Positions 2,818 to 6,151 of a DNA stretch of 64,000 nt are shown here, in pieces. The DNA is from Chitinophagales bacterium. Its GTDB lineage: Bacteria; Bacteroidota; Bacteroidia; Chitinophagales; Saprospiraceae. The stretch is from assembly GCA_013299105.1 (NCBI GenBank), contig JAAFJY010000006.1:62001-126000 (forward strand), written 5' to 3'. Both the position numbers and the translations under genes were made by a program. The notes under the pieces were generated by a model, which was not told where the DNA came from, did no database searches, and saw only the letters and a program-made list of their open reading frames with translations. The number at the start of each line of letters is the position of its first letter. Within the stretch, counting starts at the first letter, position 1.

Positions 2818-3280
2818 AACATTGATTTTGACAATACAGCAAATACTGACATGGGCAATACTTGTTGTAAAAAACTGGCATTCAAGCCATTGATATTTTT
2901 TTTAGGCGATTTTATTTGGTCATAAAGCAGCGAAAATTCGCGTGCCTGGGCGTTTGGGGATCACATTTGGGGGCAAAATAAGCTATTTTTCCCTTAAAAA
3001 CAGCGCTATGTTTGTATTGTTCAAAAGCGATAAAGTACTTCAGAAATGGATTACCTAAAATCGTTGAGAGCAACAAATAAGGCAGTGGCAGCGGGGACCT
3101 AGAGAGTTTAAACTTCACTACCCAAGCCTTAACCACTTGACTGCAAATTTATGCAGTTTGTTTTTTGTTTGTTGATTTCTTGGACAGCAAATCTGGCAGA
3201 GTTGAAAAAGGACTGATAGTTTCCGCAAGTCCGAAGGATTGATCCTTCGGACTTTTGCTTTTTAGGGATTTTTGTCTACG

Positions 3281-3440
3281 TAACAACCCACAAATAAACC
3301 ATTCCAATTCGCAACTTCGTTGCTCCAATGTGGCCACGAATCTTTTTTGCCCCGCTTCGCGGGATGGGAACACGGATGAAACGGATTTTCACGGATTGCC
3401 AACATGATTTTGACCGTGATTTTGACCATCACGTTGACAT
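3281..3440 (-). repeat. Family D repeat, copy 1
   Basis: Begins with an AATAAACC-type terminus, carries the CCCCGCTTCGCGGG hairpin, then GGAACACGGATGAAACGG and alternating GATTTTGACC/GTGATTTTGACC strings. The second terminal inverted repeat is missing. Confidence 0.75.
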
Positions 3441-3508
3441 TTATTTCAATCCATACTCTGCTTAGGGCCACAGATTAAATAAAGTGGACAAGTTGATAAA
3501 GCCTTTTA

Positions 3509-3607
3509 ACCGCTTTGCGGCTTCAAGTTGGGAACACGGATGAAACGGATAAAACTGATTTTCACTGATTTCCAGCATGATTTTGACCATGATTTTGGCT
3601 ATAACAT
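3509..3607 (-). repeat. Family D repeat, copy 2 (partial)
   Basis: Contains the AACCGCTTTGCGGCTT hairpin, GGGAACACGGATGAAACGG, ACTGATTTTCACTGATT and CATGATTTTGACC. It lacks both terminal inverted repeats. Confidence 0.7.
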
Positions 3608-3838
3608 TGCCACGCAGAGGGCTAAATCAAAAGCCAAAGATGTCCACTTTGTTTCTTTTCTGTTCCTAACGTAAGTTCTGGGTGAAAAATGTTGTTTTTC
3701 AAATACTTGCAGTGTCTTGCAGAAGCAAAATGTTGAAAATTCGTCTCAACTTTCTCTCTTCTAGCATCACAACTTACTAATTTTTGTCAACGTATTTCAG
3801 GCAAGGACATTAATCATATCGAAAACTTCCACCCCCTA

Positions 3839-3942
3839 CCATATATATACACCCCCTGCTGCCTATATATACAAAACCTGGTGACACATAGACACTGCGT
3901 GTGTATATATAGCGCATATATGCGTCCCTATATATACAAAAC
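3839..3942. repeat. TATATATA tract with direct repeats and a palindrome
   Basis: A 16-bp direct repeat CCTATATATACAAAAC occurs at 3862-3877 and 3927-3942, exactly 65 bp apart. Between the two copies are GTGTATATATA and the perfect 12-bp palindrome CGCATATATGCG (3913-3924). A related CCATATATATACACCCC lies at 3839. This is downstream of the caspase-like gene. Function unknown. Confidence 0.7.
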
Positions 3943-4033
3943 TGCTGATGGCCATTGTACAATACCATTTTCAGGCCGCTGGTCCTGTGCTGAACGGCTT
4001 TTTTACTTTACAAAGGGTAAAAGGGTAAAAGCC

Positions 4034-6070
4034 CTAAAGGGCAAGGGTCCTGGCTAGGCGAAACCCCACATTGCTGCTGCGATCGTCCGGGGAGCCGTTG
4101 TCGCGATCCGCCACCCGGCAATCCTGCGGGTCGTTGAACCACGACCCGCCGCGCAAGACACGGCCGGAGCCTGTTTCCGGGCCGCGTGGATCATTACGGG
4201 GGCTTTTTTCGTAGTATTTTTCATCGAACCAATCCCAGCACCATTCGTTGACATTGCTACTCATTTCGTGCAGGCCAAAGCCATTGGGGCTGTCCAGACT
4301 GCCTACGGGTACGGTATTTTGGCGGTATTCCCCCACCAAGGAATAGTCTTTTTTTGTTTCCTTAATGGCTCTAAAATTAAGGTTTTGGGAGTTGGCGATG
4401 TCCTGGCCATGGCCAAAGCGGGTCTTTTTGCCATTGCCCATGCTGGCCGCGTATTCCCATTCGGCTTCGCTGGGCAAGCGAAAACCAAGGGCTTGCCAAT
4501 TGCATTGTGCCGGGTTTTGGGTTTGGTAAACGGCCTGTAAGCCTTGTGATGCACTCAACCAATTGCAATAGGCCAGGGCGTCATTCCAGCTCACGTGGAG
4601 CACCGGGTGATTGCCCTCGCTGGCGGGCCGGGTGCGCCCGTCCACGCCGCAGCGCCAGGTAACCCCAGGGGTCAATTCCCATTTGCCTTGCTTGGCATCC
4701 CAGAGGTAACTGCCGCCTTTTTGCTCGGCATCGGTGGCGTACTTGGTTTTTTCGATGAATTGGGCAAAATCAGCCCAGGTCACTGCGTATTTTGCCAGCA
4801 TGAAAGGGGCTATTTCTACTTCGTGTACGGGCTTTTCATCCTCATATTGATTGTCTCCAAAAGTATCTCCCATCATAAAAACGCCGCCGGGAATGCGGAC
4901 CATGTTCATGGCCTGGTCGATGGCAGCGTAGTCGGGAGTGGAGGGGATGATGATGTTGGGTGGAGGGATGACTTCAATGGCTGAGGCGGTGGCTTTTTGC
5001 TCTTTTTTCAAATCGCGTAATAATTGTAGCCTTTCCCTGGCTTCGACTACATGTGGGTTTTTGGGGTGTTTGGTGATGAACTTTATATACAGCTCAGGCA
5101 GATCCCGCAGGCGACAGTTTTGCCATTCTTGTTCTTCGCGCAGTTGTTCCAGCTTATGGGCGGCTTGTTCGGCCAAGGAGCTGTCAGAAAAGTCAAAAAG
5201 GAATTCCTCCAGTGCATCAATGTCCTCCCCAGCTTCGCGGAAGGCTTTTTCGTCGGGTTTTTCTTTTTCGATTTTTTGGAAAAAGAATTGGCCTGAAAAG
5301 TGCTGCTCAGTGCCATGCAAAACGGCGGAATACGCGGTTTGTTGGGCGTTCTCGGCCACGCGTTCTTCCACAAACTGGGCCAATTCGGCAAAAGAAAAGG
5401 TCTCTTTGTCGGGGTTTTGCAAAAACGTGAGCAGGGCTTTGGCAAAAGGGCTGTTGTCTTGGCGGTAGCCGTCGGCAACTTCTTCGAGCAGGCCGGAGGT
5501 GAGCACCCGGCGCGAAGGGCGGGCTTCGTTGCTGTTTTTGTAGTCGCCTTTGCCGCGTTTCACACAAACCGAGCCTGAAAAACAGGTGTCCAAAAATAAG
5601 GTGAGGTGATGGACCTGGATGGCGCTGAGGTGATCTCGAAAATTGCCGTGCTGTAGGCAGGTGCTGGCCAAATTGCCAAGTTTTCCATCGTGCGGAATAA
5701 AATACCCCAGCTTGGTGCGGGGATTGTAGTGCCCATGCCCGGAGAAATAAACGAGGAGGTTGTCGGCAACTTGGTTTTCGGCTTTGGGGTGGAATTGCTC
5801 GGCGATTTCGTCGAGTTTATCCAGGATATTGGCGCGGGTGGCTTCCTGGTCATAAAGTTGGTGGATGTGATCGGTCCTGAAACCGTAGTCTGCTTGCAGG
5901 ATGGCGACCAGGTCACGGGCGTCTTTACAGGCGTTGTTGAGTTTGCGGATGGCGGGGTCGGCGTACTGGTCGATGCCCACGATCAGCAGGTGGTTGTTGC
6001 GGGCGGGGTTGCTGCTCGCGGTCTTGTTGGGGCGGGTGATGAGTCCCTTGTTCTCTTGTTGTTTCGCCAT
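4034..6070 (-). CDS. Caspase-like peptidase fused to FGE-sulfatase (C-type-lectin-fold) domain
   Basis: 678-residue cytoplasmic fusion. The N-terminal domain (about 25-260) is a caspase/metacaspase peptidase (C14): the histidine is in VYFSGHGHYN (His112) and the cysteine in FLDTCFSGS (Cys163). A helical, charged linker (260-400) follows. The C-terminal domain (about 410-675) is an FGE/SUMF1 fold (MVRIPGGVFMMGD, NHPVLHVSWNDALAYCNWL, RLPSEAEWEYAA, GRVLRGGSWF, NVGFRLA). The last 40 residues carry a possible retroelement-diversified ligand-binding region (separate entry). ATG 6070 (MAKQQENKG) was preferred to an in-frame ATG at 6127, which would add 19 hydrophobic residues of no clear role. Inferred role: sensor-triggered protease in stress or defence. 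Caspase-FGE fusions are known as variable proteins in other phyla. Confidence 0.92.
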   Translation of the reverse strand: MAKQQENKGLITRPNKTASSNPARNNHLLIVGIDQYADPAIRKLNNACKDARDLVAILQADYGFRTDHIHQLYDQEATRANILDKLDEIAEQFHPKAENQVADNLLVYFSGHGHYNPRTKLGYFIPHDGKLGNLASTCLQHGNFRDHLSAIQVHHLTLFLDTCFSGSVCVKRGKGDYKNSNEARPSRRVLTSGLLEEVADGYRQDNSPFAKALLTFLQNPDKETFSFAELAQFVEERVAENAQQTAYSAVLHGTEQHFSGQFFFQKIEKEKPDEKAFREAGEDIDALEEFLFDFSDSSLAEQAAHKLEQLREEQEWQNCRLRDLPELYIKFITKHPKNPHVVEARERLQLLRDLKKEQKATASAIEVIPPPNIIIPSTPDYAAIDQAMNMVRIPGGVFMMGDTFGDNQYEDEKPVHEVEIAPFMLAKYAVTWADFAQFIEKTKYATDAEQKGGSYLWDAKQGKWELTPGVTWRCGVDGRTRPASEGNHPVLHVSWNDALAYCNWLSASQGLQAVYQTQNPAQCNWQALGFRLPSEAEWEYAASMGNGKKTRFGHGQDIANSQNLNFRAIKETKKDYSLVGEYRQNTVPVGSLDSPNGFGLHEMSSNVNEWCWDWFDEKYYEKSPRNDPRGPETGSGRVLRGGSWFNDPQDCRVADRDNGSPDDRSSNVGFRLARTLAL
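4037..4150 (-). other. Candidate DGR variable region (VR) in the FGE domain
   Basis: Read on the minus strand, the stretch after GGSW has 14 positions (4138 down to 4070) where lectin-fold variable proteins usually vary. All 14 are NNC or NNT codons: TTC AAC GAC, GAT, GAT, GAC AAC GGC TCC, GAC GAT, AGC AGC AAT. Each can be derived from an AAY codon by changes at adenines only. The constant codons between them (CCG, TGC CGG GTG GCG, CGC, GTG GGG TTT CGC) are nearly free of adenine. This is the signature of adenine mutagenesis by a diversity-generating retroelement. No reverse transcriptase or template repeat is visible in this window, so the element would have to act in trans. Confidence 0.55.
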
Positions 6071-6151
6071 GAAAAACGGGCAATGGGTTGTTTTTGCAAG
6101 GATAAGAAAAAATGGTGAGAAATGCAAAAGGAGGGATTTTTGACCTGCGAC

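What the first reader, a model, noticed from the sequence alone, without database searches (positions are those of the whole stretch)
4037..4150. Probable diversity-generating retroelement target at the end of a caspase-like protein
All 14 codons at the usual variable positions of the lectin-fold domain end in C or T and can be derived from AAY by adenine-only changes (TTC, GAC, GAT, GGC, TCC, AGC beside unchanged AAC/AAT). The constant codons between them are almost free of A. This is what a DGR variable region looks like. DGR variable proteins with an FGE fold fused to protease domains are known in other bacteria. No RT or template repeat lies in this window, so the driver would act from elsewhere. 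A caspase whose ligand-binding face is hypermutated would be an adaptive trigger.
Basis: partly seen in the sequence, partly recalled or inferred. Interest (0 to 1): 0.85.

Follow-up and report, generated by a model that had tools for sequence, protein, structure and literature searches.

The report
Orphaned hypermutation target on caspase sensor
A bacterial caspase carries, at its tail, a binding patch that looks as if it was once rewritten by a retroelement that deliberately mutates proteins, but that retroelement is nowhere in the genome, so one binding variant seems to have been frozen.

Summary
The gene at window 4034-6127 (-) encodes a caspase (Peptidase_C14) fused to an FGE/C-type-lectin domain. 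Comparison with relatives carries the case. The same genus and family hold at least eight genuine DGRs whose targets are FGE-tailed, including caspase-FGE proteins. Their VRs differ from their TRs almost only at A (0-1 non-A differences).

The window VR fits this template at 12 of 12 asparagine columns; ordinary FGE paralogues in the genome reach 8-9. It also carries the shared VR 3' flank: GCCAGG, then CTTTTACCCTTTTACC (once in 7.67 Mb), then a TATATA cluster.

The genome has no DGR RT, Avd or TR. Its only RT is retron-like and sits beside cas1. The flank ends where the accessory-Avd-RT genes should begin.

Best reading: an orphaned DGR target, now probably frozen. RT loss is visible at other stages in the genus. 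Orphan or remote DGR targets are known, so this is a variant of a known kind.

The parts
4034..6127 (-). Caspase-FGE fusion gene. The listed frame starts at a TTG; the ATG at about 6070 (MAKQQENK...) is the likelier start.
   Evidence: the ORF listing; Pfam PF00656 and PF03781
5339..5989 (-). Peptidase_C14 (caspase) domain with His (SGHGH) and Cys (DTCFSG) motifs intact
   Evidence: Pfam E 3.4e-18; Cys invariant and His nearly invariant in 12 homologues
4049..4909 (-). FGE-sulfatase / C-type-lectin-fold domain
   Evidence: Pfam E 5e-63; PDB sequence matches to FGE enzymes and to the Treponema DGR variable protein 2y3c, E 7e-27
4055..4150 (-). Core of the DGR-type variable region, GGSW...GFRL, with 12 NNY codons at template-Asn columns
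4046..4054 (-). GCCAGGACC directly behind the VR: the VR-type end shared with real VRs (the G002, G005 and G026 templates have GCCAATACA here)
4016..4031 (-). CTTTTACCCTTTTACC element, about 24 nt behind the VR; once in the whole genome; also behind real VRs in G003 and orphan VRs in G002
3840..3936 (-). TATATA cluster (8 of the 14 TATATA in the window). 3840-3921 is 74% identical to the matching flank of an FGE variable-protein gene in G160. In RT-linked loci the accessory-Avd-RT genes start behind this cluster.
2818..3839 (.). Gene-poor stretch where an accessory-Avd-RT-TR cassette would lie in relatives; no relic of any of these found

Best explanation
The gene is a former target of a diversity-generating retroelement: an orphaned variable protein. 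The FGE/lectin domain at its C-terminus was once rewritten at adenines of a template repeat, and the N-terminal caspase would act when the lectin face binds its ligand. The accessory-Avd-RT-TR cassette is now absent. Either it was deleted from behind the gene, or the gene with about 215 nt of 3' flank was copied away from a DGR that the genome later lost. With no RT or template in the cell the binding face is frozen, so the protein should now work as a fixed sensor-caspase. Shown: domains, VR pattern, shared flank, absence of machinery. Inferred: past rewriting, ligand sensing, caspase triggering, and the order of loss.
For: (1) Relatives of the same genus and family carry real DGRs with FGE targets. 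In the nine TR/VR pairs the differences at template A versus elsewhere are 17:1, 18:0, 16:0, 12:0, 21:1, 16:0, 17:0, 17:0 and 15:0. Two of these VRs belong to caspase-FGE proteins: L050, the query's best full-length relative, and L051. (2) The window VR fits the template at 12/12 columns against 8-9/12 in other own-genome FGEs. It is 2nd of 80 VRs in non-A agreement with two of ten templates. Its differences are enriched at template A, at best 19/33 against 15/63, p = 0.001. (3) VR-type end GCCAGGACC, and a 16-nt element found once in 7.67 Mb; the five exact sites in the genus all lie behind FGE genes. (4) TATATA flank homologous to another variable-protein gene's flank, E 3.7e-8. (5) No DGR RT at E <= 10, no Avd at E <= 10, no TR; the same searches find them in G002 and G003. 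(6) RT loss seen elsewhere in the genus: G003:C156 keeps 45 codons of RT behind a VR, and G002:C1:6006451 keeps the flank nearly to the RT start codon, then breaks.
Against: No template survives, so past A-specific rewriting cannot be tested directly. The best template in a relative still shows 14 non-A differences in 66. The residues (D, N, S, G) are less varied than in real VRs. No relic of RT, Avd or TR lies behind the gene, so loss in place is not shown. The tree puts the gene beside a DGR target only with weak support (87/77). The shared 3' flank could be kept for another reason, such as transcription termination.
Confidence: 0.8

Rival explanations
1. Ordinary FGE-domain fusion that was never a DGR target. 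The D/N/S/G-rich loops and Y-ending codons follow from the fold and from codon usage.
For: P(12/12 NNY | amino acids) = 0.41; FGE domains are common in the genome, 16 matches; no machinery in the genome.
Against: Other FGE paralogues of the same genome score 8-9/12. The VR end, the once-per-genome 16-nt element and the TATATA flank are shared with real DGR targets. The best full-length relatives are RT-linked targets.
Confidence: 0.12
2. Active target rewritten in trans by a DGR that the draft assembly misses (a gap, or a plasmid lost before sequencing).
For: Trans targets seem to exist in the genus: G003:C156 lies in front of a truncated RT and matches a template on another contig of that genome at 63/63 non-A positions. 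The genome is a 77-contig draft.
Against: 99.99% completeness; neither RT, Avd nor TR is found. The cis site is fully assembled and empty.
Confidence: 0.08

Closest known systems
Cellular DGR variable proteins with FGE/CLec tails and effector or sensor heads in multicellular bacteria (Dore et al. 2024, PMC10907252)
   Same: FGE/CLec VR at the C-terminus; heads of conflict-system type. Relatives of this gene include RT-linked FGE proteins with caspase and nSTAND1 heads.
   Different: No DGR machinery in the genome here. The incomplete loci described there lie in a genome with other DGRs.
Orthocaspase-CLec variable proteins and remote VPs of cyanobacteria (Vallota-Eastman et al. 2020, PMC7517822), including all3226 with remnant TR-VR homology and no RT nearby
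   Same: Caspase-like head plus CLec tail; RT-less paralogue; those authors already suggest removal of diversification components once a good variant is selected
   Different: Bacteroidetes-type lineage; RT, Avd and TR are absent from the whole genome; the cis flank survives and intermediate stages exist in sister species
Distal DGR targets with a decayed RT nearby (DiGReF survey, 2012, PMC3521204, which also lists a Haliscomenobacter DGR)
   Same: Target gene separated from a working RT; strongly mutated RT near distal targets
   Different: There another RT in the genome can serve the target; here none is found

Membership tests
Active diversity-generating retroelement | DGR-type reverse transcriptase in the genome | tested here: not met
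   Genus/family DGR RT profile gives no match at E <= 10. The single RVT_1 protein has LPMGAPTSP, matches retron-type models and lies beside cas1.
Active diversity-generating retroelement | Template repeat differing from the VR at adenines | tested here: not met
   BLAST, masked VR pattern with 3 mismatches, and a template pattern that finds the G002 and G003 templates: none in this genome
Active diversity-generating retroelement | Avd or other accessory protein | tested here: not met
   Avd profile: none at E <= 10 here, present in G002 and G003
DGR variable protein (target lineage) | C-type-lectin/FGE domain with the VR at its C-terminal end | tested here: met
DGR variable protein (target lineage) | VR codons derivable from AAY at the template's Asn columns | tested here: met
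   12/12; weak alone
DGR variable protein (target lineage) | VR 3' end (IMH-type) and 3' flank as in real targets of relatives | tested here: met
DGR variable protein (target lineage) | A-specific variation between strains | not testable with these tools
   one genome per species held
Formylglycine-generating enzyme (sulfatase maturase) | Two active-site cysteines in the CxxxxC stretch behind GGS[YF] | tested here: not met
   Aligned stretch is WFNDPQDC against YLCHDSYC; the first Cys is replaced by Asn (alignment; the role of the two Cys is from established knowledge)
Caspase (Peptidase_C14) | His/Cys catalytic dyad | tested here: met
   SGHGH and DTCFSG present

The most novel reading that the evidence does not exclude
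Bacteria of this family routinely use DGRs to find a useful binding face on a death-effector protein and then shed the mutator. That leaves a growing stock of fixed, germline-like caspase sensors; the window gene would be the end stage in a genome that has lost every DGR.
Probability: 0.3. Interest if true: 0.75.

Novelty: new variant of a known kind. Interest (0 to 1): 0.5.

Why it matters
It gives a concrete case, with intermediate stages in sister species, for asking what happens to a hypermutated immune-type sensor once its mutator is lost. Is the variant kept because it works? It also shows that RT-centred DGR surveys miss targets without a nearby RT, and it offers 3' flank marks by which such orphans can be found.

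Tried and rejected
A masked VR pattern in viral contigs gave no phage-borne template. The genome-contig scan gave only a distant Cloacimonadota locus. Codon bias alone was rejected as proof (P = 0.41). tblastn and blastn for RT, Avd and accessory relics behind the gene found none; the only relic-like matches are the 16-nt element region and the TATATA flank. The FGE tree is too weakly resolved to prove nesting among DGR targets. The second VR-like gene of the genome (C23) differs from the window VR at many constant and third positions, so the two were not written from one template. Structure prediction was not run: by its stated rule, relatives fetched with the genome search are not accepted there, and the fold assignment by Pfam is already certain.

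Full report
OBSERVATION. The gene on the minus strand, 4034-6127, encodes Peptidase_C14 (E 3.4e-18) and FGE-sulfatase (E 5e-63) domains. With codon usage from 30 window ORFs, the probability of 12/12 Y-ending codons given these amino acids is 0.41.

NO DGR IN THE GENOME. The window lies in a 7.67-Mb genome in 77 contigs, 99.99% complete. It has one RVT_1 protein (C40:18798-19373). That protein has LPMGAPTSPVLSN where DGR RTs have LPIGNLTSQ, matches retron-type models best, and sits directly upstream of cas1. A profile of six DGR RTs from relatives (A1) finds nothing here at E <= 10, but finds one in G002, two in G003 and one in G004. An Avd profile likewise finds nothing here. A template pattern finds the templates of G002 and G003 and none here. 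The VR with its adenine-type positions masked, allowing 3 mismatches, finds only itself, and BLAST finds only an FGE paralogue at 72% besides short chance matches.

RELATIVES ARE REAL DGR TARGETS. The query's FGE matches lie next to about 330-aa RTs in G018, G005, G026, G002, G004, G029 and G023; two more DGRs were found in G003. The RTs carry LPIGNLTSQFFANV-type and YMDD/YVDD motifs. Template repeats read as GGSWNNNPxNxRxANRNNNxPDNRNNNxGFRL. Nine TR/VR pairs show 12-21 differences at template A and 0-1 elsewhere. Two of these targets are caspase-FGE proteins (G018 L050, G005 L051). G002 is probably Haliscomenobacter hydrossis, judging by its 8,371,686-base chromosome (from memory, not tested); a Haliscomenobacter DGR is listed in PMC3521204.

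HOW THE WINDOW VR COMPARES. Over 12 template-Asn columns, RT-linked VRs score mostly 11-12 Y-ending codons, the window 12, one other own-genome gene (C23:149168, PKD-FGE) 12, and the other own-genome FGEs of the same motif length 8-9. Against ten templates the window ranks 2nd of 80 VRs at non-A positions for two of them. Its differences are enriched at template A (best p = 0.001), but 14-22 non-A differences remain, so none of these templates is its own.

THE 3' FLANK. Behind real VRs comes GCCAGG..., where most group-A templates have GCCAATACAG, then about 23-28 nt on a (C)TTTTACC(C)TTTTTAC element. The window has GCCAGGACC and CTTTTACCCTTTTACC. The exact 16-mer occurs once in its genome and five times in the genus: here, twice in G003 (both DGRs), and twice in G002 (a caspase-FGE and a trypsin-FGE gene). 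Next comes a TATATA cluster, holding 8 of the window's 14 TATATA. Similar clusters lie within 320 nt of many RT-linked VRs of one DGR group (G018, G005, G002, G026) and are absent at others (G003). Window 3840-3921 matches the flank of an FGE variable-protein gene in G160 at 74% over 82 nt, E 3.7e-8. In G018 the last TATATA touches the start codon of the accessory gene; in the window the homology ends at the equivalent spot and nothing of accessory gene, Avd, RT or TR follows. In G018 two target copies not followed by the cassette keep the same flank, so copying of the gene with its flank is as possible as deletion in place.

STAGES OF LOSS IN THE GENUS. G003:C156 has an FGE VR followed by 45 codons of RT and then unrelated sequence. 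This VR matches a template on another contig at all 63 non-A positions and differs at 16 of 33 A, so it is served, or was recently served, in trans. G002:C1:6006451 is a caspase-FGE gene whose flank parallels the G003 DGR nearly to the RT start and then breaks. Its VR against the G003 template shows 19/32 A and 6/64 non-A differences, p = 4e-7.

MECHANISM. Most likely the protein is a sensor-caspase: the lectin face binds a ligand and the caspase (dyad motifs intact) cleaves in response. The face was once diversified and is now fixed. Sensing and triggering are inferred from domain logic and from PMC10907252, PMC7517822 and PMC7159879; neither is tested. It is not a formylglycine-generating enzyme: the first active-site cysteine is Asn.

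NOVELTY. Remote and RT-less targets, and the idea that diversification parts are discarded after a good variant is found, are published. New here, as far as the held library shows: a target lineage in a genome with no DGR at all, a conserved 3' flank as its mark, and loss stages in sister species.

Noticed in passing
G000:C23:149168-149914 (L025, L207): A second VR-like orphan in the same genome: a 1631-aa PKD-FGE protein with 12/12 Y-ending codons at template columns. Its FGE core groups with the G004 DGR target (99/95), and no RT lies within the 18 kb read.
   Followed up: partly
G003:C156:14091-14225 (L123 3091-3260): RT truncated after about 45 codons directly behind an EAD11-FGE target whose VR still matches a template on another contig at 63/63 non-A positions.
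   Followed up: yes
L202 (G089:C1:1787001-1802000): Template repeat and matching VR side by side, but no RT detected in the 15 kb read.
   Followed up: partly
L201, L191, L112, L113, L114, L111, window 3840-3936: Conserved 3' unit behind DGR targets of this family: TTTTTACC repeat, often a hairpin, then several TATATA sites. It is kept behind target copies that are not followed by the cassette; function unknown.
   Followed up: partly
G000:C40:18798-19373 (L001): The genome's only RT is retron-like in sequence and lies directly upstream of cas1.
   Followed up: partly
G002 (L118-L122, L125, L126, L130, L149): About a dozen FGE genes with VR-like tails, one frame with four FGE domains (L120), but a single DGR RT in the genome.
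   Followed up: partly
window 3360-3600: Two similar stretches with GGAACACGGATGAAACGGAT and repeated 'GATTTTGACC' words in the gene-poor region behind the gene.
   Followed up: no
L079 (Cloacimonadota MAG JAKOXG010000011.1): Six FGE-domain frames in tandem with diverse tails; no DGR RT found in the 18.8 kb held.
   Followed up: no
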